From Lyophyllum atratum (taxonomy: Eukaryota; Basidiomycota; Agaricomycetes; Agaricales; Lyophyllaceae): DNA of 64,000 nucleotides. The DNA is taken from positions 248,001 to 312,000 of the forward strand of contig JACGCN010000045.1 in the NCBI GenBank assembly GCA_014905825.1. Direction: 5' to 3'. Shown piece after piece: positions 43,337 through 60,065 of this stretch. Below the pieces are notes generated by a model. It was not told the DNA's origin. It worked only from the letters and a program-made list of their open reading frames with translations, and did not search any database. A program made the translations under genes and the position numbers. How positions within the stretch are numbered: the first letter of the stretch is position 1; the number at the start of each line of letters is the position of its first letter.

Positions 43337-43344
43337 GTCTGGAT
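43337..43344. repeat. Target-site duplication, left (GTCTGGAT)
   Basis: GTCTGGAT stands directly outside the left inverted repeat and is repeated exactly at 60058-60065 outside the right one. An 8 bp duplication is the size reported for KDZ elements. Confidence 0.9.
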
Positions 43345-43595
43345 CACTTCAGGCAGCCCCTAGAGATACCTTCTTAGGGTAGTTGGTCCCACTGTGAAAG
43401 ACTAGCCTAACAGGGCCTGGGACCATGGTCTGGTCCCAAGCAATCTGGTCTTCCCACACTTAAGGAGTGGGCTTCCCAGTTTGGGACAGCCCAAGCTGTC
43501 CCAACAGGGTATGGTCTTCCCATCTCAGGTCTTGGGCTGGACCAAAGGTGTGGGCGAGACCAGATATGTCACGTCACGCTTTGTGGTCCTGCCCA
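43345..43595 (+). repeat. KDZ left terminal inverted repeat
   Basis: About 250 bp matching the reverse complement of 59808-60057; two differences were found, both of the C/T or G/A kind (near 43417 and 43583). It contains short inner palindromes such as GGGACAGCCCAAGCTGTCCC. Confidence 0.93.
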
Positions 43596-43936
43596 GCCTG
43601 TGTGGTCCTGCCCAGCATATATCATGCATATATTATTAGTGATACACTAGGTCACAATATAACGCTTTGAAATTTCTCTTGCCAAAATGCTGGAGAGATG
43701 TCTAAGGGGACTGGGTGCTGTGATCAAGAACTTCAAACAGGTTACAGAACTAGAGATACATTTTCATGTTATTTGTTAAACTGGTAGAGCCATTATGGCA
43801 ACAAACTATTCTAGAGTTTGGAAAGGACATCTTTATAGTCTTCCAACACCCTTCCTTCCTTTGTAGTTATTGATAGCATGTTATGTACAAGTAAAAATAG
43901 TTTACAAGCATTCCCGATATATAGAATGTGTATAGA

Positions 43937-44205
43937 CAAGTATGGGCAAGACCACGGGAGGTGGTGGGCAAGACCAGAGAAAATGTGGGCAAGACCAGGG
44001 GGCGGTGGGCAAGACCATGGCAGGATGTGGGCCGGACCAGGGATGCGGTGGGCAAGACCAGGGGGCGGTGGGCAAGACCAGCGCGGAGGCAGTGGGCAAG
44101 ACCAGGCGACGGTGGGCAAGACCAGGGAGGAGGTGGGCCGGACCAGGGATGCGGTGGGCCGGACCAGGGAGGCGGTGGGCTGGACCAGGGCAGGAGGTGA
44201 GCAAC
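43937..44205. repeat. Left subterminal 21 bp minisatellite
   Basis: About twelve copies of a roughly 21 bp unit with the core GTGGGC(A/C)(A/G)GACCA followed by a variable G-rich spacer. The same core in altered form (ATGGGCAGGACCA) makes up the array next to the right end. Long frames across it are repeat artefacts. Confidence 0.9.
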
Positions 44206-44270
44206 AAGTGGTCTTGCCCAATTTAGATCACCCGGTTCAGGACTAAGTTGATATATTTTCACAATAACTA

Positions 44271-47200
44271 TTACAACTTATCGCGATAAGCTGCTGCGAT
44301 ATCGAAGGCATCGAGAGTCTCTACTAGGTAATCATCAACATCAATAACATCATCTCCAATTTCATCATCCTCATCCACTACTGCGGCCGTTACCTGATCA
44401 GCTCTTGCTTGAAGCAGCTCCTCCGGAGTCGGACCCCAATCTCGGAGTGCATCACGACCGGCGTCAAGAGACCGCAGCGGCAATTCCCATGTCGCGCAAA
44501 GACGAAGGAGATCTTGCTTCCTCTGTTCAAATTGATATTTGAGGGGTAGGAAGTCTATAATAAAATGTTAGCCAAGCTAGAAATGTAAGCAATTGCAAAC
44601 ATACCAGTACTCTCAATTGCCGCAGTAATGACCGTCCACTCTTCTTGAAACCAAAACTGAAGAGCGCGTTGTTCGTGCCGCAGCCGCGCTTCCTCTTCCG
44701 TGCATCGATCAAGCTCCAGTCGAGCTTTGATGCCACTGCACACCCCATCGTCGGATAGCCAAAGTGGTGGCTCAAGAGGCGTGTCATCAGCAAGCCCAAC
44801 ATCTTGCCATATCTCGTCGTCGACGTCGAGCGCAAATAGCCCCTTCATCTCGATTCGAGGTGGACAGGTGGCGCCAGTGGGAGCCTTATTAGCAGTGATC
44901 AGTGATGCCATTGTTTCGCAAAGCTTATTGTAGTCGCGCGCCAACTGCTGGACACTAGGATCACGTCTCCAAACCGATGCCTCAGTGTGAGCATGGATCT
45001 TTTGCTCTGTACGGTAGTTAGATTTTGTGAGACTGAGCGAGCAACTTGATGACGTACCGTTGACTTGTTTGCGAAATGATCGCTCAACCCGATCCATCTC
45101 AAACTTCCTTGCCCGCAGTCGCTCGCGAAGCCGGACCTTAAGTGCAAGCGCGTTCATACGGGCAGCAATAAATGAATTGCCAAGTAGTTGGATCAATTCG
45201 GCGCGATCATCGACCCCAAGAGCACGCTCCTGGTGCTTGAGTCTAAGTTCGGCGTCATGCAGCTTTGGGCGCGCAATAGCCAACTGCGCCTCGACGCCAC
45301 TGATTGCGACAGTGTCCGCCGATGGGTCTAGAATCTCGTCTTCGAGATTGGTGACGCGTTGCTGCAGAATGTCACGTGCTTTCCGTAAGCGGATGGCCTC
45401 CTCGACTGCATTCTTGCCTTGGTTCTTAGAGCGACCTGCAGTAACGTCGTGAGACTACATCTAATATTAGGGCTCCAAATGACTTACGCGGCAGGGGTTT
45501 CGTTTGGGCTTTTACTTGGGCGTCCCACTCACGGCGAAGGCACGCTTCGGTTTGTCCAGCCTCTTGCAGCGCCGTCTCCGCAGCTTGCCGTTTGTCTTTA
45601 CAATGTCGGGAGCGCCATAGTAGCCAGTTTGCAAGCTTGGCTAGACTTTGTTTATCAGCCTGTTGCACCTGTCTGTCGAGTGTATAGATCCGCTGATGAT
45701 ACTGATAATGACATGTCAGAAAGTACAAACAAACTCGCTATGGAAAGACTTACACCGCATACTCGTAGATAGGCGATGAGCTTGCTGATTGAGTGCCAGA
45801 AGCGCTCGCATCCCTCGCCATCTGATAGACCGAATCCCAAGCATTTTCGTGGATGATAGATGACCTGACAGGCCCATTGGTGACCGAATGCATGGAACAC
45901 GGAAATCGCAAAGGATATGCGATTGATATGACGTTTGAGAAATTTCCAAAGGACACAGCTTCTCTCGAGCTGGCAGGCAATGTCGTAGAGAAGTCCGATG
46001 CGGAAGGCTAGCGGGAGGTGTTGAAACAAGGTCTCAATGAGGACCAGAGCGTAGTGCTGCTTCTCTCCAGCTGATCGCATATTCACGATCCAGAGGACAC
46101 GGTCGTGGCGGCAAAGCATGGCCATCAGAGCAGTGTCATCAAAGAACTGGGTGCTAGCCTTGACTCGAGCATCATCGGCGGCGGTGAAGCCAGACTCGCA
46201 ACCGTCGAGTACTGACTTTGGTACACGCAAGGTCTCTTCGTACTTGTCAACCTCATCGTTCTGCTGCCGACTTCGTTTGGGTGGCTTTGGTGCCTTCGGC
46301 GGGCGAACCCTCTCGACGTACCGAGCCATGCGATCTGCATCGGATTCGGGCACGAATACAGTCCGCGGATGAGCGCGCTCCGGGTCCCGCGCCTGCTTGT
46401 TCCGTTTCTGGGTGAAGCAAGCATCAATGCAAACTATGGCATCTGGACTGCCTGGGCTATCGAGGATGTCAATGAACAGTCATGGCCGACAAGAAAGACA
46501 CTCACTCTGTATCAGCACATCGGGGGAACTCGCCACCAAAACAAAGGGGGCACCGAGCGCGCAAGTAATCACTGGGCCGCTCACGAGGCGTGGGATGTGG
46601 GAAAGGTTGGGAAGGAACGGCGACAGGATGTTCGTCTTCGAGATCTGCTGCTGGCCGTCGCCTCTTAGGTGCGGTACGTAACGGAACGGGGGTTTCCTCG
46701 TCGTCGACGTCTTCAACCGTAGCTTGTCGAGTTGGTGTTCTTGGATTTGAGGATGGGGCTGGCGGGGCGGAGCTACGTGAAGGAGATGGAATGGCGGAAG
46801 TGGGGATATCGTCTCTGCCGTCGTTGGTGTCATGTTCCAGCGATGGACGGTCTTCTTGAGCACCGTCGTGAAGGCGCGTGGCGGCCTGCCGGGCCTGCGA
46901 CAATTTACTATCCACATACTTCGCGGTGGCATCCTGAAGCGTGTTGTACCACTGAAGCGCGTTGGAGAACCGCCGCCGTAGTGAATCCTGGCGGTACGAT
47001 ACGAGCATGAGATTAGAATGATAACGAAGAGTGAGAAAACTTACTTGTGTTGTGAGCTTATAGCCTTGAGGACCGAGGAACTCCTCAACGGTCTGGCACC
47101 ACGCCGTGATATTCGGTGGCATATGGACGAAAAGTCGGGTGACGAAGTCGAGAACTAGTAGGTCCACAGCCAGAGTTGGAGCCACGGGCGAGCAGGGAAA

Positions 47201-47849
47201 TAGGCCTCGGTTCATCAGCTGCACTGCCGCAGGGGAACATTCGCATATCTGGACGCTAAGAGATTCGAGAGCTAGGAGACACTGTTAGCAGAAGCCAATC
47301 CCAAGGAAAGACTGGTAACTCACTCGAAAACCGCAGCACGACCATATCCAACTTCCTACCCGGACTACCACACGTGCACCGCAACTCGGATTCGGCACGC
47401 AGCCGCAAAGACTGTGTCTTACTGAGAACCTCCATATAGGGAGGAATCAAGGCAGGAATGACCTCCGTGAGCCATCGCTGCGACTGATTTGCCCTTTTCC
47501 TTCGGTGGCGTGACTGCAGGGGATCAAAGCCAGGGGCAACGGTGGAGTCGAACATGACATCAGGCTCGAAGTGAAAGGGATCTGCATCGTCCAGGTGATC
47601 TGCGAGCGGAGCACGACGTGTTCTGCCGTCGAACGGGCGGTCACCAGCGAAGCCTATTTGCCCCGGTATCCTTGGCAGATTGGGGTGCTGGATGAGCGTA
47701 TCTCCACCAGAGAGGTACACCAAGGGACGAATACCATCGGGACGCGTAAGATGGTGAGGACGACCCGGTCCAGGGACTGGTGTGTATGATTTAGGCGTGC
47801 GCGGGCTTGACGCCGTGTTCTTGATTGATTTGGTGAGCTTAGGACGCAT
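44271..47849 (-). CDS. KDZ transposase with CxC cysteine cluster
   Basis: DDE/RNase-H-fold transposase of the Kyakuja-Dileera-Zisupton group. Met at 47849 opens MRPKLTKSIKNTASS; about eight exons follow on the minus strand. The N-terminal part holds the cysteine-cluster domain usual in fungal KDZ proteins (ELRCTCGSPGRKLDMV ... VQICECSPAAVQLM ... TRLFVHMPPNITAW). A variable Ser/Pro linker is next, then the catalytic region: IVCIDACFTQKRNK (first Asp), SVLDGCESGFTAADD, LLYDIACQLERSC, HAFGHQWACQVIYHPRK and SDGEGCERFWHSISK (acidic residue). The C-terminal third is coiled-coil-like (ESELR..., RLRERLRARKFEMDRVERSF) and ends DIAAAYRDKL. No stop was found inside the exons I could join, so the element may be autonomous. 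Confidence 0.85.
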
Positions 47850-48287
47850 CGCAAGCGGAGAGGGCAACAGAGATGGCGAGACTGCGAATGGTAGATACAG
47901 TAGAATAGTGACATAGGACGCGCCGCCACTCCAGGCTCGCGAGATGGCCAACAGCCATCCCCTATCGGCTCAGTGGCGTTCGGCAGTTCCAAACGCGGAT
48001 GGCCACCCGCCTGCCCATTGTTTCCCATATCCGCGTGGCCGCCACATCAATTTCTCCAATGAAGGAGAACAATGACTTGCTCCGGATATACGAATGCGTG
48101 GCCGCCACATCAATTTCTCCGATGAAGGAGAACAATGACTTGCTCCGGATATACGAATGACCGGGATTATCCTCCGTTCACGCCAGCCCCACTCGAAGAG
48201 TGAGGCGGGGGAAGTTGTAAAACGTGTCTCATTATAGATGGTATACATACGACGTAACTGGTATATACAATGTATTGTAGACAAGGC
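47850..48287. other. Transposase upstream region
   Basis: Non-coding gap between the Spt5-like gene and the transposase start, holding the 63 bp duplication. Confidence 0.5.
48033..48158. repeat. 63 bp tandem duplication before the transposase
   Basis: GCGTGGCCGCCACATCAATT and the following 43 bp occur twice with one substitution. Each unit holds an imperfect palindrome TTCTCC(N)ATGAAGGAGAA. It lies about 190-310 bp upstream of the transposase start. Confidence 0.93.
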
Positions 48288-51200
48288 TCAAGGACATATG
48301 ACTACTAAGGTGCTCGTGGCCAGGCGAATGTAAGTCTTGGAGTCTCTCTTCATTGTACGGTCGCGAACAACGCATTGGTCCTTTCCGAATTCCATGACCA
48401 CGAACTCCTTACCCATCCAAACACCATCGAGAGCGGTAACCATTTCACCCTTGATTTCCGGCCGAATTGGACGTACATACTTGTCCGGCACCAAGAGCCT
48501 TTCCATATGGATTAGAACTTTAGCTTGATTGCCTTCAGTCCCGATCCACAGTCCCCGTTTGTCCTCGTAATCCCCGTTTTTGAAACCGGGGTCACGAAGA
48601 ACAGCCTTGGTGTTGTTGATTTGGACTTTGATTCGTTTGCCGGCGAAAAGGGGTGATTCCATCCAAGGGCTGTAAGCTGTGCAAAAGAGCTGATTAGATA
48701 GTCAACGAGAAGCAAATGGGAATACCATACGGAAGGACGAATTTGCACTTGGAGTTCGAGAGGAGGGATCCCATGCAGGGCTGAATGCCACACTGGTGCC
48801 GGGCGGGAGGGGCGTTGATGGCACAAGAGGAAGGGTAGACTGGGGTATCACCATCCCCGATAATATGGATTGCCGGCGGGTCATCTCCTCGATGCTCAAT
48901 GGCGTGAAATGGGAGTCGTTGCTAAGTAGCGGTCAACATATTTCTATACCGAGTCGACGAAACGTACATTAACGTTAGATGCGAGAGGCTGATGCGTTCC
49001 TGTCTCATCGTCGCTTGAACTTCAATAAGGACATTGTTGCCTTCTAACGTAGACTTGATGATGGCTTCGTAGGCCTTGAGCTGGTGGTTTCTCATGACTC
49101 GAACATGCCGCCCGACGAGATGACGATGAGGATCCTTCGGAAACTCAAGTCTGGAGTTGTGATGCGAAGGTTCGCCTGAGTGCGTTATGAAAGGTAATTC
49201 GAAGAATTGAACGCAATTGTACGGGACTTGCATCTGTGTAAATAACGTGAGATGGATACACAAGGTGCTCAGGACAATATTTTGATGAGACAAAGCCTGG
49301 AAATATTGTGAAGGTGCTCTTTGTGTGATAACACTATGATAAATGAACATATGATAGGCCCAATTCTGTATTTTATCGGAAATCACAGTGTGAACAAATT
49401 CAGAATTCATTCTCTAAAGATATGTAAAAAACCTTCACAATATTTTCACAATATAATCAGTGAAGATTTCATAATATGTTCACAATATAGTCAGGTAGTC
49501 AAAATATTTTCACCATATCTTCATCATAGTCTGGAATACCTCACTATATTGTGAACATATTATGAAGTATTTACTGATCATATTGTGAAAATATTGTGAA
49601 TGTTTTTTTACATTTCTTTAGGGAATAAATTCTGAATTTGTTCACACTATGAGTTTCAACAAAATACAAAATTTGCTTTACTATATGTTCACTTATCATA
49701 GTGGTGTTGCGCAAAGAGCACCTTCACAATATCTTCAGGCTTTGTTTCATCAAAATACTGTCCTTGGCACCTTGTGATACTAAGCAAAAGTAGGTGAAAG
49801 GACTGACATGTTTCTTCGCCTTATGATCGTACAACGTCAGCATTTCCGGTGTCACAGCTACCACCCACCCCGTTGAACCTGAGAGTGTTCCGATGGTGAC
49901 CTTGACTTGGTCCCCGACACGGAAATCCTTTCGTAGGGAGTCAATCGATACCGCCAACTGCAATTTATCTGGTACTGTACGAATAACAGCTTCGTTGCCA
50001 GTCAGACTTTCGACTACGCCGAAGACACCCTGCGACTCCCCGTTCGCAACTATAACCGAGTCCCCGAGTACCAATTGATGCCTAGACATCATCTCCAAGG
50101 TTCTTTGAAAGACATCTCGAGGAATGCAGCGAGCGTTTCGAAAGAGAGCGATTTCGTCCGAAGTCGGTATGGCTTCCTCTGGATAAAAGTCGTTCGTGAC
50201 GAATGACAGGTATCCATCCAAGTAGACTGCACCCTTGAACAGCAGAACTTGATTCCTCCTCTCGACCGACTTCTCTCCCCAGACCCCTATGACTTTCTTC
50301 TCATCGAACAGCGCCTGATCCGGACGACTACTTCGTGGACGTTTTACAGGACGAGTCAGCCTGCGCTCTAGTCTGAGCCGAGGGACGACCAGGACATCAG
50401 CGCCGTATGTACCCCCCCCGTGTTTGAACTCCCGAACGTAGGCTAGATCACCTTGATACGGGTGCCGTGAAAGCCGTACCCAAGACTGGTTGCGAGGCGT
50501 GAATAATGTCGGCTCCTTTATCCAGACCGACGCATCCTCGGGGGCAATGATGTGCATCCGCTGTGGGTAGACGTTGGATACTTCTTGACATGCTGATTCG
50601 ACGTCGCTGACGGTGGTAGCCTCGATGACAATCCAGCCGGGATGAGAAACTTCGCCAACGATGGACTTTACCGCCCAGCGACACCCACCTCGGATGATTT
50701 TAGCCATCAAGATGAAAGCCGCCGTTTCTTCATAGCCCGGCTGCGAAATGGTCAGTAACCAGTACAACATATGACTTCAATAAACTGACCTTCACCGCTA
50801 CCCTCCACAACTGCGGCCTTGGGACATCCAACAAACTTTCGTCGTCAACATAATCGTGCTTGTTGTCGTGCTTGTTGTCGTGCGCCCGTTCGTGAGCACG
50901 AGTCAAAAACGACATCCAGTCGCCTTCAGCGGACGCGCGAATATGCTCACGATAGAGCAGGCGGTGGGAGACGCGACTGTCGGCAACTACGGGTTCCTGT
51001 TCCTCCAAGAAATCATCTAAAGGGCGTTCTTAGTGGTCTGTCTCGGGGACACTGTATACAGTACGCACCTAACTCCTCATCATCATCGTCTTCCTCACTC
51101 TCGTCGTGTACCTCGGCCTCCAGGCTCAGAAATCGCCTCACGTCCTGCTTCGTGCCGTGTGAGTATGGATTTTGAGGCCTGGCATGACTTGTCGCATACC

Positions 51201-51390
51201 TCCTCGATGCGCGGGCGCTTTTGACCCGTTCGTTGGGCGTCTACTGACTTCTGTAGTAACATTGAATACATTTTTATTGACTGCTCATGAAGTTTCTTAC
51301 TTCACCAATATCGTCGTGCATGTCTTCATTTGACAACATTTTGCCGTCGTTAGACCCAGCGACGACGGCATTCACTTCATTAGAGTCCAT
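48288..51390 (-). CDS. Spt5-like NGN/KOW elongation-factor homologue (transposon cargo)
   Basis: Resembles Spt5, the RNA polymerase II elongation factor that works with Spt4. Met at 51390 reads MDSNEVNAVVAGSNDGKMLS, then an acidic N-terminus (HDESEEDDDDEEL, DDFLEEQEP) as in Spt5. NGN domain: LWRVAVK joined to PGYEETAAFILMAKIIRGG and GWIVIEATTVSDVESACQEV. KOW-like blocks follow: GDLAYVREFKHGGGTYGADV, LVLGDSVIVANGESQGVFGV, FRVGDQVKVTIGTLSGSTGW, HLVGRHVRVMRNHQLKAYEA and WMESPLFAGKRIKVQINNTK; the end is TYIRLATSTLVVICP. It lacks the repeated CTR heptads of cellular Spt5. About nine exons; the intron 49234-49807 holds a MITE. It lies inside the KDZ ends, so it is carried by the transposon. Domain assignment is confident; function on behalf of the transposon is inference. 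Confidence 0.82.
49260..49775. mobile_element. 516 bp palindromic MITE in an intron of the Spt5-like gene
   Basis: The two halves are inverted copies over most of the length, starting ACAAGGTGC and containing TTTTGATGA(G/A)ACAAAGCCTG and ATATTGTGAAGGTGCTCTTT, with an AT-rich centre full of TTCACAATAT motifs. GATAC is present on both sides (49255-49259 and 49776-49780) as a likely 5 bp target duplication. It has no coding capacity. The host intron (49234-49807) is 574 nt; without the MITE and one duplication it would be 53 nt, the usual size here. Confidence 0.87.
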
Positions 51391-51506
51391 CCTACTATAA
51401 AATACTGTCTATTCTAAGTGTATTAAACGGCCATAGGGACGGCGGGCAGGGATGGTAGTGGTACCACGTCAAGAGCGAAATATTCTAAGTCCGGCCAGGC
51501 GCCATC

Positions 51507-51734
51507 AGTTGGCGCAGCACGTTTGTTTAGGGTAGACATTTAGCACGTGCTGTCCTAAGGTGTCGCACCACAAATGCAAACCTCGGGCCCTCGGGACGCC
51601 AGGCCCAGGCGCGATGGGTCTGGACACGTGGCAGGCCCAAGCTGTCGCATCACAAATCCAAACCTCGGGACTCGGGACGCTGGGCCAACACCACGTGCCA
51701 AATGTCTACCCTAAACAAACGTGCTGGGCCAACT
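51507..51734. mobile_element. Small inverted-repeat element (MITE-like), 228 bp
   Basis: The ends are inverted repeats of about 43 bp (AGTTGGC(G/C)CAGCACGTTTG then TTTAGGGTAGACATTT(A/G)GC). The interior holds a further direct duplication (CACAAAT(G/C)CAAACCTCGGG twice). No certain target duplication was seen. It stands about 115 bp upstream of the Spt5-like start codon. Confidence 0.7.
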
Positions 51735-52269
51735 CGTCACTCGACAAGTCCAAACACTCACTCACCTCTTGACTCCGCACCACCACCAGCCCTTCAAGTA
51801 GACTACAATAGACTACATTACCGTACACTACGTTAGAAATAGCTACCGTATATCAATCTATGTTACATTTTGCAACGCTGGTGGACTTAGGGTGAAAACT
51901 ACATAGGATTTATTAACTTGTCACTGAAGGAATAGAGCACTGTAAGTCAGTGAATTAGAATAAGATGAGGGAAAGCTGACAGGTACCTGGCTAATAGGAC
52001 ATATCAGAACGGCGGCGTCGAGTGCACGATGCTGAATGGGAGGGGAATATGAGAATGGGTAAGTACGCGTGCTGATTGACCGACTTCATGAAACTTACCA
52101 GAAAAATTGGTAGACTTGGCGGACTGAGGATACTGGGGACCAAGTGAGTACCCGCCCTTGGCGTTAAATTGCTAGAGCTCACCGACGATAGGAACGATAT
52201 GACTTGCGATCAGAGGACGATGGCTTAGCAGTAGCAGGTTGGGGGAACTGCTCGACGGCCGAGACTTGC

Positions 52270-52277
52270 GCTCTATT
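52270..52277. repeat. hAT target-site duplication, left (GCTCTATT)
   Basis: GCTCTATT at 52270-52277 is repeated exactly at 55908-55915. An 8 bp duplication is the hallmark of hAT insertion. Confidence 0.93.
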
Positions 52278-55200
52278 TAGTGTTCACCAAGGGTATGCCA
52301 ACCCGTGCGGGTTTTCGAGGCGGGTAGAGGCGGGTCCGGGTCCGGGTCAGCATTTGTGTACCCGTGGCATAACCCGTACCCTTGCTGAGGGTTTGGAGGG
52401 TTTCGGCACAACGGCAAAGTGTCTGCATATGCTAAAAAAAGAACTGTACATATTGAAATACATGCCGAATTCCAACTGTGCAGTTTTACACAATTTTCGA
52501 ACCTTAAATCCGTCCCCAATACACTTTTGCGAACCTCGAAAAAATTCAGCTGACATCCGCTAGTATGTCGGAATCCCCAGAACCTCCTGCAAGGAAGTCG
52601 ACGACAGGTAGAATCATCAGTACCACGAAGCGAAAGCTTACTGCACCAATTTCCACGTTTGTCAAGGCCGTTCGCCCGAAAAAGAAGGCCAAGGTAACCG
52701 AGTCCTCGGATGTGGCATCCTCGGTCCAGGAGACCGGTACAGCGTCTTCAGTTCAAGAGCGGCAATCTACCCCATCTGTGACTTCTCGCCAAAAGGTTAT
52801 TATTAGCGATGAAGAGGATGAAGATGCAAGTTCTCACCGTGGTCAAGCCCTGGGTCAAGACAGCGACGTACTCATGATATCAGACGAAGAGGCTGACGAG
52901 ATCACTGCTGAAAAAGAATTAGGTATGTGACAACATGTTTTCGGGACTGAATACTTACTGAGAGTACCATTTACCAGCGCGCTTGTCCAAGGAATGGACT
53001 GCCGGTGTTTATGGATTCTTCAGACCTGATCCCATCATCGAACAGGTGAATGGACGTCGTGTTCACACCTTCGTCTGTGCGTCAACTCGTTGCCGTGGTA
53101 CCACCCGAAATGTTCGCCGCTTTCTTGACACCGGAGATGCGAAGTCCACCAGTAATCTTCGGAGGCATGCCATAAAATGCTGGGGCGAGGAGAATGTCGA
53201 TGCCGCTCGTGGACGCCCTGTTGATGAGATCCGTGAGGCCACAAAAGGTATATCACCATCTGGATCAATCACAGCTGCATTCGAACGGAAAGGCAAAGGG
53301 AAGGTTAGTTATTCACATCGTCAGCACACCCGAACGGAAACTAGGTATTTCTTTAACTTACCATGCTTGATAATAGCATTGAACGAGACATCAAACAGGG
53401 CCGAAGTTGTTCGTTGGGTGGCCGAGAGTTCTCGGCCGTTGAATATCGTCAAGGATCGCGGGTTCCAGAGCTTGATGAAGACCGGGCGGCCAGAGTACTG
53501 GATCCCGTCGCCGAGCACTGTCGCACGAGATGTGAAGTTAGTATTTGCAAAAACTCGAAATCGGATTGCTAGAATGCTGAAGGTGAGTCGCCGTAATGGT
53601 ACCCAATGTTTGATTCTCACCTGCTCCAAGGAACACCCGGGTGCCCTCAGTTTCGCTACGGATGCATGGTCTTCTCCCAACCATAAGGCCTATGTTGCGG
53701 TTACGGTCCACTTCGAACAAGATGGCATTCCGGTTTCAATGCTCCTTGATATTGTCGAGGTGCCTCGCTCACATTCCGGCTTGAACCTTGCAAAGGCATT
53801 CGCGGATATCCTGCAAGATTTCGGTATTTCGGACAAGGTAAGCGCAGTTCCGTTATCAGGGAAATGTAGTCATACCTTGCTTCCAGATACTCAGCATCAC
53901 CTGCGACAATGCGTCGAACAATGGCACAATGATCCTTGAGCTTTCGAAGCTCGTTCCTTCCTTCCCCGGCGAATCCAACCTAACCCGATGCTTCAACCAC
54001 GTCCTCAGCCTCGTCGCGAAGACTGCCATTCGTGTATTTGATGTCCCAGATGTTGATAAAGACGACATTTTGGACAAGGCGACTGCTGAGCTGCTGGAAC
54101 TGGCGAAAAACATCGACATGGAAGACCTCGAGACTCAGGCTGCAGGATCAGCTGACGATGGTGCAGGTGGGCAGGCAGACAGCACGGATGGCTGGATCGA
54201 CGAGCGCCTCGAGCTATCAGACTTCGAGCGCGAGGAACTGGACGACAGTGTCCTCCCGGTTCGGCTGCTACTCGTCAAGGTAAGATCAGTCTGCGTTTCG
54301 GACATGGATATTCGAAGACTTACTAGGAACCTACAGCTTCGTAAACTCTCCTATTCAATCATTAACTCCACCACCCTGTTGTTGCCGAAGTGGTTTTCGA
54401 CCTTGACAGACTTGAAACTCGACGAACGCACAATGCCCCGAGACGTTTCAACACGCTGGAACTCAACCTATGACATGTTAAAGTTTGCAATCGACTATCG
54501 AAAAGCGATTGACAGACTTACCGGTGACAAAAACCTCGGCCTTCGGCAGTACGAGCTCGGCGACGATGAGTGGGAGATAGCGAAACAGTTATCTTCACTC
54601 TTGATGGTGAGTGCAAAGAGTCGATGATGCGTGTGATCGCTTACCAATGTGAGTCGTCCCCCAGATATTCAAAGAGGCGACATTGTTCTTTTCGCGCTCC
54701 ACACCTAACATCCCCACTGTCCTTCCGGCAATGGACCACATTGATGAGTGGCTGACGACTGCCTCCATCAACTCAGAACTTCCCGCCTCCATCCGCGCGG
54801 CTGCCAGCCTGTCCAAAAAAACTTTAAACAGGTACTATGAACGTTCGGATTGCTCCAAGGTCTATCGCATCGCAATGGGTATGTATTTCGGTTCGATGGA
54901 TTCAATTTATTTGTATTCTAACTGTCCTTAATCTAGTTCTTGATCCGCGCTGTAAACTTGAATACTTCAAAACGGCAAAATGGGAGAAAGAATGGATTGA
55001 CGAAGCAGAAAGGCTCACCAGGCAGGAATACATTGACTCGTACAGGGATCTTGATGCTGAGTTTGCAGAGCCAAGCATTGTTCTTACTGCCCAGGCCGAG
55101 AAGCGGGTGAACGTCCTGCTGCTTATATTGATAAATGATAATGCTAATTCCAGTTTTAGAATGCCTTGAAATCGACCAACATGTTCGACTCCCTTCCTGC

Positions 55201-55907
55201 ATTCTCAGCAGCGCCATCTTTTACGGACCGCGATGAACTTTCTCGATACCTTGCGGAAGACGTCGTTTCAATGAAACCGGAGGACGCGCTTGCCTGGTGG
55301 GCATCCAAGAAGACTGTCTACCCTCGCCTCTCTCGAATGGCGCTCGACTATCTTTCTATCCCTGGTGTGTAAATCATCTTTTAAACACAGACGGACGCCT
55401 CAACAATGTACTCGTTAGCTACCTCTGTCGACGTCGAACGTGTTTTCAGCCGTGGCCGCATACTTTTGTCTCACCTCCGCAACCGCATGTCTGCTCAAAC
55501 AACCCGTTCGCTTATGTGCCTCCAGACTTGGAGTCTTCTCGGCTACGTCAAGAATAAGGATGTACTTGCTGTTACTCGGCTGCAAGAGATTGAAGGTGAT
55601 GACGACGAGGACTTAGAAGATGGCTGGGATGATATTGAGGTGTAATGTATTTACTAACTGTCGTATACATATTTTTGTAGACTTTCTAGTAAGTAGTACA
55701 CGGCCGGCGACCCGCCAAATATTTCCCAAGCAGTCAGACCCTCCCAACCCGCATACAAACCCGCACCCGCACCCCAACCCGTCAAACCCGCCCAACCCGC
55801 ATACAAACCCGCACCCGCACCTCAACCCGGCTGTCGGGTAGGGGTATTCGCGGGTGTGGGTACGGGTCAGCTCATCGGCACCCGCGGGTTACCCGTGGTG
55901 ATCACTA
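52278..55907 (+). mobile_element. hAT transposon, 3.63 kb, nested in the KDZ element
   Basis: Terminal inverted repeats TAGTG(T/A)TCACCA(A/C)GGG (14 of 16 matching) with subterminal ACCCGCAC-type motifs near both ends (52290-52385 and 55738-55895). An exact 8 bp duplication flanks it. It encodes one apparently intact transposase. The element lies wholly inside the KDZ ends, so it jumped in after (or into an ancestor of) that element. Confidence 0.93.
52565..55645 (+). CDS. hAT-family transposase with BED-type zinc finger
   Basis: Starts MSESPEPPARKSTTGRIIST, a basic and acidic disordered leader. A BED-like finger follows (FVCASTRCRGTTRNVRRFLD ... NLRRHAIKCWGEENV: C-x-C and H-x-x-x-C arrangement). 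Then the RNase-H core: LSFATDAWSSPNHKAYVAVT (first Asp), ILSITCDNASNNGTMILEL (second Asp), LTRCFNHVLSLVAKTAIRVF, RDVSTRWNSTYDML, and the hAT dimerization end DALAWWASKKTVYPRLSRMA with the C-terminal SVDVERVFSRGRILLSHLRN. The acidic tail GDDDEDLEDGWDDIEV stops at 55643-55645. About ten exons with introns of about 50-60 nt; the joins I checked (52922, 53330, 53838 regions) keep frame. No internal stop was found, so it is possibly active. Confidence 0.9.
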
Positions 55908-55915
55908 GCTCTATT
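55908..55915. repeat. hAT target-site duplication, right (GCTCTATT)
   Basis: Exact repeat of 52270-52277, directly outside the right end of the hAT element. Confidence 0.93.
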
Positions 55916-56181
55916 TAAAAGGTTCGTAGTGGCCATGTCTCGACGCCATTGTTCTTAACCGACAATTATGCTAATTTAGGAACCGCGACTCGGGTGGAAC
56001 ATCGACGTTCGCATTGGCCTGGCCAGGCGCCTAAAAAGGGAGATAATGGGAATCATGTTGGCCAGTGGTAGTAAGCGACCGCGTGGTACGTCCCAGTCCT
56101 CGTTCCCGCCCCCTTTCACTTTCTTGCTACCCCACATCTCAATTCTACACTCTACAGTTACATTCAACCTACCCTACATCT

Positions 56182-56910
56182 ATGCCGGCGCGACAGACTC
56201 GCTCCAATAAGCAGACGCCGCGACAGACTCGCTCGAATAGGCAGGGCCCATTGGAAGCGCTTCCTAATCCTCCAAGGGCCGCCAATAGACGGAAGAAGGC
56301 CCCTGCGTCGAACCCAGCCCCAGTCTCGTCCACGAATGGGTTGAGCGACGCTCTCAACGCGTCATCTGCCGCCAATTCAGGTGCTTCGCCGCCCAACAAC
56401 AACGAAACTCCTTTGCCCGCTCCCCCGCCCATTAAACCCACAACCAACTCCTCCGCCGATTCTGATGCCCAGCATCCGCCTCCTGATAACCCCCCTCCCA
56501 CTTCCGCCACCTCACCTTCCCACGACGACACTCCGCCACCCGTTGAAACAGCAGTTGGTGTTGCACCACCGGTTCCACATGGTCAGCGCCCGCGCCCGCG
56601 CCCGCGTACCTACGCATCCAAGCCAGTGGCCAATGAGGACCAGGACGACGATCGTCATTTCGTGTCCGGTCGCGTCTGGCAGCAGAAGCTCCATGCTCAA
56701 TTCGGTGCTGAATCTGGCGAGCCTGGAACGCCCCGGGGATCACCGCTCGACCTCGTGCCTTCTGAGGGGGCGAACCCCATTGATGACCTGCAGGAGGACA
56801 TCCCATCCGACCATGCCGAAGGAGCGGAGAATGAGGAGGAGGAAAAGAATGAGAACGACGAGGAGGATCAGAACGAGGACAAGGACGAGGACGAGGACAA
56901 GGAAGAGGAC

Positions 56911-56942
<32 letters not shown>

Positions 56943-56988
56943 GGAGGAGGAGGAGGAGGAGGAGGAGGAGGAGGAGGAGGAGGAGGAG

Positions 56989-57022
<34 letters not shown>

Positions 57023-59328
57023 ACGAGGAAGGCGAAAGTGAAAAGGAAGAGGGCGCAGCCGGGGTTGACATCGAGGAAGATCGCCCTAACACACCGGTTG
57101 AGAGCGATCCCAGCGCATCAGATTACGAGACTACCGCTACTGCTCGACAGGCTGATCGTGACCGTCGCCGCCGACGAGGACGTGCCGTCAGTCTGTCCAT
57201 GGAGGAACAGGACGCAGAGGACGAGCAGGACTTCCTCGGCAACGCACAGCCTACTTCCCCCCCTCGCTTGACGGCTTTAAAGAAAGGCAAAAGAAAGGCC
57301 AAGCCCCCGAAGAAGTCGCCTGAGGTCGACTCCGACAGTACCTCACACACATCAGGCCCACTACCGAAGGCAGCGGCCGATTCTGCGGTCGCCGCCTACC
57401 GCGAGTACCTCGCCAAGCTCGAGGCACTGTCGACGCAGTACGGAAAGCTGGTCGGCCTATTCCAACAGGTGGTCGGAGAGACAGTCAAACGACCTCGCCA
57501 GATGAACGCATGGAATGCGTTTCAGGCCTGGTATGGGGAGTTCGGAGACATAAAGCATGATCCCGACAGTAAGTCTTTCTTAATCGCATCACCGAACATA
57601 TACTTATCAACATTATAGTGTCCAAGGATGACTGGGTCGCAATTCTCAGCGAGGATTGGCAGAAGCGTAAGGACGATCCTCAAGTAGACATGACCGCCTT
57701 CAGAAAGGAGGTTCTCGACTGGTATGATAACGGTATCAACCTCTACGTCGAAAAAAAGAGGGAGAAGGGCAACTTGCCAGCTCTGACGAGCCGCATCCTC
57801 GACCCGTTCATTAAAATGGTCAGTCCCCCTTCGAAACTCCCGTCGTGCCATATTCTTATTTGTAGTCAACAGAGTCGCCAAGTCAGGGACCAATACAATC
57901 TCCAAGTCTTTGGCTGGCTCATCGACACTGAGCGGGATGCTCATGGCGCCACGGCGAGTGTTGCTTGGGGCGGATCAGACGAATACAAGGAGTTACGCGC
58001 AGAGTATTCGACCGTACTGACACAGCAGGCTTCGGACTACGAAGGAATGTTCAAGTATGTACTTTCAGTCCGTCTAGTGACTCAAGTTCGCTCATGCTAC
58101 CTTTAGGCACAAGGATCTGCGCGATCGGGAACGGGCAGTCGCCAAAGGGTGATTTGTCCCAAAACTGATAGACGATGGCCCGCCCAGGGATCGCTTTCGT
58201 CGTAATCTCGGCGAATACCTGCGTTGTGACATTGGTGCGTCATTTTGATGTCTATCTAATGGTGCTACATCTAACTAAATAACTCGCAGGGGGTATCATT
58301 GGTGCTAAACTCTCGGACAAAGAAGCAAGCGTCCTGGTGATGAGATGGAAGGATTGGTGTGACTTCGCATACACGTCCCAGATGTGCCTCGTCGGCTGGC
58401 ACGCCGATCTCCCTGCGCTCGGTCCAGACTTCAACTTCAAGAAACTCAAGCAAAAGCCTCTAGAAGAAATGGTAAAGGCTCGTACGGACTCGCCCAATTC
58501 TCAAGACGTCGTTCGGGTCATCCCGTGGTCCGAAGGTATGTTCTCCTGTCGTTATGTGGATAGAAACTATACTCATAATCCTTAGCCGACAAGCAACGTC
58601 AGGGCGCAAACCAGGCAGACATTCCGCTCCTCGTGGACACCGACCGAACGGTACTTCTCAAAGTCTCGGATTCGACAAAGTTCCTCAACACATTTGCGAA
58701 ATCGAAGAGCGGGGCTCGTCGCCCACCAGTCACCATTCCCGAAGAGCCATCCGACACTGGGTCCGACTTGGAGTTCGAAACTGAGGGTGATTATGCTCAG
58801 CCTCGTCAGCCTGTTCCTCGAGTTGATGCTCGACGGGTGCAACGAGCACACTTGGGGCCTGCGGAACGTCGCGAACAGCAACCCCGAGCAACCACGAGCC
58901 GCGACGAGCTCCAGTCTCGCAAACGCGCCCATGAGGATCACACCCCAGCCGTACCGCGGCAGCATCCGTCTGAGCCATCGTCACGTGCCCCCGTCGGGAT
59001 TCATCGTCCACCTCCTCCCATTCCTGGTCCACGAGCGTCTCGTCCCCCGGTAACCACTTCGCGCTACCCGCCAGCTCAAATCACAAACAGGCCTGACCCG
59101 GGAATGGCGGAGCGCCCAGCCAAGAAGCGGAAAATACATGAAGTCAACCTCACTCCGCGTACTTCCCGTCCAGTGGCTCCCATTCCACGCCGCGCCACGG
59201 AGAATGGGCATCGTCCAGCATCGCGCCAACCCGTAGCCGGCCCTTCGCACCACAACATTTACCCCGAGCGGGAAGAAGACGAAGGATACGCGCTTGACGA
59301 TTATGAGAACGGGTATTATGACCAATAG
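56182..59328 (+). pseudogene. KDZ cargo gene: disordered poly-Glu protein, interrupted by a stop
   Basis: Met 56182 opens MPARQTRSNKQTPRQTRSNR, then Pro/Ser-rich sequence, a run of nearly pure Glu/Asp (encoded by GAG/GAA repeats, about 56830-57040), a basic segment, and an ordered part MNAWNAFQAWYGEFGDIKHD, DDWVAILSEDWQKRKDDPQV, LQVFGWLIDTERDAHGATAS, SDKEASVLVMRWKDWCDFAY, ending in a Pro/Arg-rich tail with AERPAKKRKIHEVNL. About six exons. The frame is broken once, at TGA 58150-58152 between RERAVAKG and FVPKLIDDGPPRDRF; a CGA-to-TGA change would explain it. No family name is known to me; the WNAFQxWY region looks like a conserved domain of transposon-borne proteins. It could also be read as two shorter genes. 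Confidence 0.7.
56820..57040 (+). repeat. GAG/GAA microsatellite encoding poly-Glu
   Basis: An imperfect trinucleotide run, purest from about 56925 to 57025. Within the frame of the 56182 gene it encodes Glu with a few Asp and Lys. Confidence 0.95.
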
Positions 59329-59600
59329 TTGATTTATTTACCTGATTCTCGATGTTCCCCACTATGATCACTGTTACTTCATTTTGTATTGTCTATGTCT
59401 TATGTAGTTGTCTATGTCTTATGTAGTCTGTAGTTATTATATGCAATCCATGATTATGTCAATTTATGTCTGAATGACTTCCGATTTAAATCTCAAGGAC
59501 AAGTTGGACTTAAAGGTAATTGCGTAGACTTGAAATATGTACTAATATTTTAGTGACTATATAACATCTTATCAAACACGCTGGTATAAGGGATAAGTGG
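59329..59600. other. 3' flank of the cargo gene
   Basis: AT-rich non-coding sequence before the right minisatellite; contains a short duplication of GTTGTCTATGTCTTATGTAG. Confidence 0.5.
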
Positions 59601-59807
59601 GCGGGACCACTCACACTGTGGGCAGGACCACGCACACCATGGGCAGGACCATGCACACCGTGGGCAGGACCATGCACACCATGGGCAGGACCACGCACAC
59701 CATGGGCAGGACCACTCACACCATGGGCAGGACCACTCACACCATGGGCAGGACCACTCACACCATGGGCAGGACCAGGCGCCGTGGGGCGGGACCAGGC
59801 GCACCAT
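59601..59807. repeat. Right subterminal 21 bp minisatellite
   Basis: About ten copies of a 21 bp unit CACACCATGGGCAGGACCA(C/T) with small changes, running directly into the right inverted repeat. The core GGGCAGGACCA corresponds to the core of the left array. Long frames across it are artefacts. Confidence 0.93.
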
Positions 59808-60057
59808 GGGCAGGACCATAAAGCGTGACGTGACATATCTGGTCTCGCCCACACCTTTGGTCCAGCCCAAGACCTGAGATGGGAAGACCATACCCTGTTG
59901 GGACAGCTTGGGCTGTCCCAAACTGGGAAGCCCACTCCTTAAGTGTGGGAAGACCAGATTGCTTGGGACCAGACCATGGTCCCAGACCCTGTTAGGCTAG
60001 TCTTTCACAGTGGGACCAACTACCCTAAGAAGGTATCTCTAGGGGCTGCCTGAAGTG
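59808..60057 (-). repeat. KDZ right terminal inverted repeat
   Basis: Reverse complement of 43345-43595 apart from two single-base differences. Ends GGGGCTGCCTGAAGTG before the target duplication. Confidence 0.93.
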
Positions 60058-60065
60058 GTCTGGAT
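60058..60065. repeat. Target-site duplication, right (GTCTGGAT)
   Basis: Exact copy of 43337-43344. Confidence 0.9.

What the first reader, a model, noticed from the sequence alone, without database searches (positions are those of the whole stretch)
43345..60057. Giant KDZ transposon with cargo genes and near-identical 250 bp ends
An exact 8 bp duplication (GTCTGGAT), 250 bp inverted repeats with two differences, a joined KDZ transposase and two further genes define a complete 16.7 kb element. KDZ elements this large with extra genes are rarely worked out to the base. The low divergence between ends suggests recent movement, so it may be active.
Basis: partly seen in the sequence, partly recalled or inferred. 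Interest (0 to 1): 0.88.

Follow-up and report, generated by a model that had tools for sequence, protein, structure and literature searches.

The report
Mushroom jumping element carrying Spt5-like gene
A genome that matches the mushroom Lyophyllum atratum carries a 16.7-kb KDZ-type jumping element with matching ends, three sibling copies and an exactly matching empty site on a second, homologous contig; it holds a relative of the transcription elongation factor gene Spt5, which likely helps the element get itself expressed.

Summary
The transposase is a full KDZ/CxC1 match. Correction: 4.16 kb of the 16.7 kb is two nested transposons, a hAT (52278-55907) and a foldback (49260-49775, inside an intron); the underlying element is 12,554 bp. 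Its genes are the KDZ transposase, an Spt5-like (NGN-KOW) gene and a partner gene without a known family. The partner's 6 further relatives in this genome all lie near KDZ cores, so it is a lineage component. The Spt5-like gene was not found at those loci; it occurs at 94-96% DNA identity in another repeat with different flanks, so it was exchanged or captured. None of the four copies has all three modelled genes uninterrupted, so present activity is unproven. Large KDZ elements with 8-bp duplications are known; the Spt5-like passenger is what my limited searches did not find reported.

The parts
43337..43344 (.). left 8-bp target-site duplication GTCTGGAT
   Evidence: single copy at the empty site on C69
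43345..43595 (+). left terminal inverted repeat, 251 bp
   Evidence: 249/251 identical to the right end
43533..44220 (.). left array of TGGGCNNGACCA (first copies inside the TIR), predicted transposase-binding repeats
   Evidence: 17 of the 29 window matches lie here, 0.14 expected in the whole window
44271..48028 (-). KDZ transposase gene, 7-exon model (first exon uncertain), CxC1 + full KDZ domain
   Evidence: model; PF18758 positions 2-217/217 E 1.2e-59, PF18802 E 2.7e-8
48288..51029 (-). Spt5-like gene (NGN + KOW); exons checked are open, 5' end uncertain; main exon 49808-50740
   Evidence: PDB SPT5 profile match E 1.5e-51 for the family alignment
48206..51625 (.). block shared at 94-96% with repeats on C72, C119 and C65 that have other flanks (exchanged module)
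49234..49807 (-). Spt5-like intron, 53 nt in C66 and C72, 574 nt here because it holds the foldback
49260..49775 (.). nested foldback element, 516 bp, 5-bp duplication GATAC; absent from C66 and C57 (C75 lacks the region)
52278..55907 (+). nested hAT transposon, 3,630 bp, 8-bp duplication GCTCTATT, ends TAGTGTTCACC / TAGTGATCACC; absent from C66 and C57 (C75 lacks the region)
   Evidence: Dimer_Tnp_hAT E 2.1e-21
56182..59328 (+). partner gene (acidic, no Pfam family), 5-exon model of 979 codons with one in-frame stop at codon 623 in this copy; 5' part uncertain
   Evidence: 0 Pfam families
59598..59869 (.). right array of TGGGCNNGACCA (last copies inside the TIR)
   Evidence: 12 of the 29 window matches
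59807..60057 (-). right terminal inverted repeat, 251 bp
60058..60065 (.). right 8-bp target-site duplication GTCTGGAT

Best explanation
This is a complete copy of a KDZ-family DNA transposon, 12,554 bp long without two other transposons that sit inside it, that likely moves by cut-and-paste and makes 8-bp target duplications. Its KDZ/CxC1 transposase is predicted to bind the 251-bp inverted ends together with the TGGGCNNGACCA arrays in and just inside them, cut there and join the element to staggered target DNA (inferred). A divergently transcribed partner gene has relatives next to sister KDZ elements and is likely a helper of transposition (inferred). Between them sits an Spt5-like gene (NGN and KOW domains shown) that this family likely acquired by exchange with another repeat; the likely benefit is to help RNA polymerase II through the element's own methylated, repressed chromatin (inferred, untested). 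Copies differ by internal deletions, as expected from interrupted gap repair (inferred).
For: Ends and duplication. Four elements, 4 of 4 with a perfect private 8-bp duplication. Empty site with one GTCTGGAT on C69; the C75 copy's empty site matched 1000/1000 and the C66 copy's 994/1000; C57's is looser. KDZ 2-217/217 and CxC1; transposase model of the window copy uninterrupted. Motif array 29 observed, 0.14 expected, all 29 within about 0.9 kb of the ends. Partner relatives: 6 of 6 further matches within 9.4-18.5 kb of a KDZ core. Spt5 homology (weak model but Spt5-type chains first). Sharp-edged shared block. Frame kept with 8.5 synonymous and 11.5 nonsynonymous changes against the C72 copy in the 933-nt main exon, dN/dS 0.43, borderline (P 0.036 counting 11 of 20). 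CpG-biased C>T changes, 45 of 67 against 25.7% of C/G bases in CpG, a methylation-type signature.
Against: None of the four copies has all three modelled genes uninterrupted: the window partner gene has a stop; C57 lacks 640 bp of transposase exons, C75 the transposase 5' half, and C66 has a 25-bp insertion and a 105-bp deletion in one transposase exon; C66 and C57 read into a stop early in the partner gene. The Spt5-like gene is missing from the C75 copy, so it is not needed in cis at the insertion. Few of the other Spt5-like loci are close to KDZ cores: by eye over, only C46:1278637 lies within about 20 kb of one. Against the C57 copy the main exon has 0 synonymous and 2 nonsynonymous changes, so constraint is not firmly shown. 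No expression or methylation data.
Confidence: 0.78

Rival explanations
1. The Spt5-like gene is a neutral stowaway: a member of a gene family expanded in this fungal family that was trapped between the ends and gives the element nothing.
For: Family expanded in relatives (7 of 9 protein hits are Tricholomella, Arthromyces or Termitomyces); the C75 copy lost it; not found at sister KDZ loci; selection signal only borderline.
Against: Frame kept open in C92, C66, C57 and C72; the same module sits in another multicopy repeat.
Confidence: 0.4
2. The Spt5-like block is itself a nested transposon and the KDZ element is just its landing site.
For: Discrete block 48206-51625 with sharp edges found elsewhere.
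Against: No terminal repeats or duplication seen by eye at its edges; the three outside copies stay 99.8% alike beyond the block, so the repeated unit there is larger; block present at the same place in C92, C66 and C57.
Confidence: 0.12
3. A family that no longer moves: the last moves are past, and the likeness of the ends reflects gene conversion.
For: No fully intact copy among four; CpG decay; C66 has a 93% tract suggesting conversion or recombination.
Against: Empty sites at 1000/1000 and 994/1000, C69 allele empty, uninterrupted transposase model; copies could in principle complement each other.
Confidence: 0.3
4. Assembly artefact: the insertion or its siblings arise from misjoined haplotypes.
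For: The C75 copy's empty site lies in an inverted duplicate about 10 kb away on the same contig, which could be a folded misassembly.
Against: Four separate sites, each with its own exact duplication.
Confidence: 0.03

Closest known systems
KDZ1, KDZ2, KDZ3 of Cryptococcus neoformans (PMC12810828, passages read)
   Same: KDZ + CxC1 transposase, about 9.2-11 kb, TIRs of 139-241 bp, 8-bp duplications for KDZ1 (4-8 bp for KDZ2/3), shown to move there
   Different: No Spt5-like gene is mentioned in the passages read; whether these elements hold further genes was not settled from the passages; different fungus
TET/JBP-carrying KDZ elements of mushrooms and rusts (PMC12730594; abstract and sections 3.1.1, 3.2.1, 3.2.3, 4.2 read)
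   Same: KDZ transposon with an extra gene thought to counter silencing, passed between transposon families
   Different: Extra gene here is Spt5-like; no Tet_JBP match listed on contig C92 (a search that also missed a weak exon on C72). The two Laccaria Kyakuja families there have 7-bp duplications and no TIRs; here 8 bp and 251-bp TIRs, though the CA..TG ends agree
Spt5 and plant RDM3 (Spt5-like)
   Same: The family profile aligns with SPT5 (best E 1.5e-51) and with RDM3 (E 1.7e-14)
   Different: Match ends near position 440 of 732, so the C-terminal part is not covered; borne by a transposon; 25% identical over 41% of the query to the one distant fungal Spt5 hit
Starship giant transposons (recalled; search listing only)
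   Same: Fungal, carry extra genes
   Different: Here a KDZ transposase, long TIRs and a 12.5-kb body

Membership tests
KDZ DNA transposon superfamily | KDZ transposase catalytic domain | tested here: met
   PF18758 positions 2-217 of 217, 202 bits against cut-off 26.6
KDZ DNA transposon superfamily | CxC cysteine cluster before the core | tested here: met
   CxC1 34.3 bits, cut-off 26.9
KDZ DNA transposon superfamily | target-site duplication, 7-8 bp in the families of PMC12730594, 4-8 bp in PMC12810828 | tested here: met
   8 bp in 4 of 4 copies
KDZ DNA transposon superfamily | catalytic residues present and transposase active | not tested
   catalytic residues not checked one by one; activity not testable here
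Kyakuja, as the two Laccaria families in PMC12730594 | 7-bp duplication and no TIRs | tested here: not met
   8 bp and 251-bp TIRs
Dileera or Zisupton subgroup | placement in a transposase tree | not tested
   no reference set with subgroup labels was at hand
TET/JBP-carrying transposon | TET/JBP dioxygenase gene inside the element | tested here: not met
   no Tet_JBP match on C92 among 18 listed in the genome; limited sensitivity, as the weak C72 exon was not listed
Spt5 family | NGN domain followed by KOW domains | tested here: met
   C66 copy: Spt5-NGN 38.2 bits and KOW2_Spt5 36.0 bits, both over cut-off; window main exon likewise 30.3 and 38.7 bits
Spt5 family | binding to Spt4 and RNA polymerase II | not testable with these tools
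   AlphaFold model is weak (mean pLDDT 51.6)
hAT transposon (nested) | 8-bp duplication, short inverted ends, hAT dimerisation domain | tested here: met
Starship | tyrosine-recombinase captain gene (recalled) | tested here: inconclusive
   no such family in the Pfam scans of the frames and models submitted; smaller frames were not scanned

The most novel reading that the evidence does not exclude
A DNA transposon carries its own RNA polymerase II elongation factor: an Spt5 paralogue, traded as a module between transposon families of Lyophyllaceae mushrooms (one of them beside a TET/JBP-like exon), which pushes transcription through the element's silenced chromatin. It would be a second anti-silencing strategy next to TET/JBP demethylation.
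Probability: 0.22. Interest if true: 0.8.

Novelty: new variant of a known kind. Interest (0 to 1): 0.5.

Why it matters
It gives a base-accurate KDZ family in a mushroom, with large, deleted and nested copies and filled and empty sites in one assembly, so mobility, need for the partner gene and target choice can be tested directly. If the Spt5-like gene serves the transposon, elements would counter silencing not only by removing DNA methylation but by supplying a transcription elongation factor. I saw no report of such a gene in a transposon in the titles and abstract starts listed; those lists were capped (12 of 24, 0, and 8 of 1,130 papers).

Tried and rejected
Rejected: that all of the 16.7 kb is KDZ cargo (comparison of copies shows two nested transposons). 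Rejected: that the foldback breaks the Spt5-like coding frame; it lies in an intron. Rejected, within the limits of the search: TET/JBP as this element's extra gene (none listed on C92). Tested and negative: Plavaka and Transposase_21 cores next to the C72, C119 and C65 Spt5-like loci; two other Spt5-like loci, C67:643210 and C24:611518, have Plavaka matches 13-16 kb away, not followed up. Led nowhere: structure of the partner protein (mean pLDDT 37.1 without an alignment); protein search for the partner (1 hit, from the same fungus, 7,993 candidates scored); tRNAs (none). The exon-skipping partner model and the mini-exons inside the foldback are artefacts of my simple splice search and were not used.

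Mended on checking: a first estimate of dN/dS (0.38, P 0.016) took in some intron bases; on the exon alone it is 0.43, P 0.036 counting 11 of 20 changes.

Full report
Observation. GTCTGGAT lies at 43337-43344 and 60058-60065; the element is 43345-60057, 16,713 bp; its ends are 251-bp inverted repeats with 2 differences.

Where it is. The window is G000:C92:248001-312000 in a 64.76-Mb, 151-contig genome. Two proteins of this genome found in the protein search, P0001 and P0010, are named Lyophyllum atratum, and their contig lengths, 770,440 and 2,627,816, equal those of C72 and C75. So the host is most likely that mushroom (Lyophyllaceae). At least here the genome is present as a homologous contig pair (C92/C69, 96% over 2 kb).

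Copies and empty sites. The 250-bp end matches 8 places, which pair into four elements: C92 16,713 bp (GTCTGGAT), C75 6,257 (CAAAGAAA), C66 12,467 (GGAAATCG), C57 11,861 (GATCATAG); 4 of 4 have a perfect 8-bp duplication. On C69 the left flank ends and the right flank begins over one GTCTGGAT; the joined flanks align there with one mismatch over about 380 bases, before another, unrelated insertion in C69 interrupts the right flank. The C75 copy's empty site, in an inverted duplicate on the same contig, matches 1000 of 1000 bases (the wider 1.5-kb left flank is 97% alike). The C66 copy's, in a repeat copy on C75, matches 994 of 1000. For C57 the three related repeats examined have a single target sequence, exact in one of the three, with mismatches and one extra base beside the junction, so this one is weaker.

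Nested insertions. Against C66 and C57 the window copy has two extra stretches: a 516-bp foldback, 49260-49775, with 5-bp duplication GATAC, and a 3,630-bp hAT, 52278-55907, with 8-bp duplication GCTCTATT and ends TAGTGTTCACC/TAGTGATCACC. C75 lacks that whole region and says nothing about it. The hAT model of 990 aa has the hAT dimerisation domain (E 2.1e-21). Without the two insertions and their duplicated bases the element is 12,554 bp (16,713 - 521 - 3,638).

Genes. (1) Transposase, minus strand, seven-exon model without stops: KDZ 2-217/217 at 202 bits, CxC1 34.3 bits, CxC2 29.4 bits. The first exon is uncertain. Of the four copies only the window's transposase exons are free of large gaps or frame shifts: C57 lacks 640 bp of two exons, C75 lacks exons 1 and 2 and part of exon 3, C66 has a 25-bp insertion and a 105-bp deletion in one exon. 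(2) Spt5-like gene, minus strand. The C66 and C57 models give 793 and 794 aa; Spt5-NGN and KOW2_Spt5 are over cut-off. A profile of 8 relatives matches 18 distinct PDB sequences at E up to 0.001, 17 of them named Spt5 (or Spt4/Spt5) and one RDM3, best E 1.5e-51. The AlphaFold model is weak (mean pLDDT 51.6); Foldseek's top rows are chains of RNA polymerase II-DSIF elongation complexes with low TM-scores (0.15-0.24 by query), and the Spt5 KOW2-KOW3 structure 4ytl fits its domain at TM 0.79 by target. In the window the foldback sits inside a 53-nt intron, now 574 nt; the exons joined stay open. (3) Partner gene, plus strand, five exons 56182-59328, 979 codons with a stop at codon 623 in this copy. 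C66 and C57 read into a stop after 365 and 375 codons from the same ATG, so the 5' part of the model is uncertain. No Pfam family.

What belongs to the lineage and what was added. Besides the four copies, the partner exon search found 6 further matches, on C103, C13, C61, C1 (two) and C76; 6 of 6 lie 9.4-18.5 kb from a KDZ core, on the opposite strand, in the same divergent order. At most 6.7% of the genome lies within 20 kb of a KDZ match, so six independent hits would have a chance of at most about 1e-7; the six are probably not all independent (two on C1, possible allelic pairs), but chance remains unlikely. The Spt5-like search (main exon, 30 rows, best candidates only) has no match near those loci. 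It does match C72, C119 and C65 at 96-97% protein identity. There the shared DNA is the block 48206-51625 (94-96%), with unrelated flanks, and the three loci are 99.8% alike over at least 3.65 kb, so they are copies (some possibly allelic) of another repeat. About 3.5 kb from the main exon of the C72 gene another exon matches Tet_JBP at E 4.9e-5 (23.1 bits, below the curated cut-off of 34.9); the whole-genome Tet_JBP search did not list it. A second Spt5-like group, about 53% identical, has three copies 99.9% alike (C67, C60, C63) and a fourth at 94%. Relatives elsewhere: of 9 protein hits, one is the C72 copy itself, 7 are from Tricholomella (5), Arthromyces and Termitomyces, and one is a distant Spt5 (only the best 7,991 candidates were scored; that these genera are Lyophyllaceae is recalled).

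Function. Cut-and-paste is the established mode for DDE-type transposons; here it is inferred. TGGGCNNGACCA occurs 29 times in the 64-kb window, every time between 43533 and 44220 or 59598 and 59869, with 0.14 expected; I take these as transposase-binding sites (inferred). The deletion copies fit interrupted gap repair (inferred). Among singleton changes between copies, leaving out a divergent C66 tract, 67 of 110 are C>T/G>A, and 45 of these 67 are at CpG, against 25.7% of C/G bases in CpG; with the tract kept in, 85 of 176 and 49 of 85. That is the mark of cytosine methylation (inferred). An element-borne Spt5 relative would plausibly help transcription through such chromatin. Against the C72 copy the 933-nt main exon shows 8.5 synonymous and 11.5 nonsynonymous changes, dN/dS 0.43, P 0.036 counting 11 of 20; C119 gives the same; against C66 4 and 0, against C57 0 and 2. 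Constraint is suggested, not proven.

Literature. KDZ1-3 of Cryptococcus are about 9.2-11 kb with 139-241-bp TIRs and moved in experiments (PMC12810828, passages). TET/JBP-carrying KDZ elements are described in PMC12730594 (abstract and four sections). PMC9674265 (passages) reports variable Dileera load in another mushroom. PMC13289920 (passages), a survey of elongation factors, holds no word beginning with 'transpos' in its main text. Searches for Spt5 with transposons showed no paper on a transposon-borne Spt5 among those listed: 12 of 24 papers, none found, 8 of 1,130; only open-licence papers are held. The founding KDZ paper of Iyer and colleagues is recalled, not read.

Verdict. A real, well-bordered, recently mobile KDZ family; ordinary in its class for size and ends, unusual for its Spt5-like passenger. 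Present activity is open.

Noticed in passing
G000:C69:273300-290363 (L037, L038), opposite window 60258: The empty-site contig carries its own insertion of 17,064 bp, about 200 bp from the KDZ site, holding two identical 462-bp direct repeats (LTR-like) and frames of 1,104 and 2,735 aa.
   Followed up: partly
G000:C75:938700-941800 and 948700-958600: An inverted duplicate about 10 kb apart on one contig, one arm with the element and one without, identical over the 1,000 bases compared (97% over the wider left flank): a true palindrome or a folded assembly of two haplotypes.
   Followed up: partly
G000:C66 copy, opposite window about 57345-58345: A tract only 93% identical to the window copy inside an element otherwise 98.5-100% identical per 500-bp step, with stops in the partner exon: conversion or recombination with another family member.
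   Followed up: partly
G000:C72:119344-119919 (L072:2026-2601): Exon weakly matching Tet_JBP near the C72 Spt5-like gene.
   Followed up: partly
G000:C24:611518-613553 (L071): A broken and rearranged Spt5-like copy with several stops, with Plavaka matches about 15 kb and a weak Tet_JBP match about 16 kb away.
   Followed up: no
window 48033-48158: A 63-bp tandem duplication, 98% alike, at the 5' end of the transposase gene.
   Followed up: no
whole genome: 109 KDZ exon matches at E up to 0.001, many in pairs with equal scores, so the assembly may hold both haplotypes in part.
   Followed up: no
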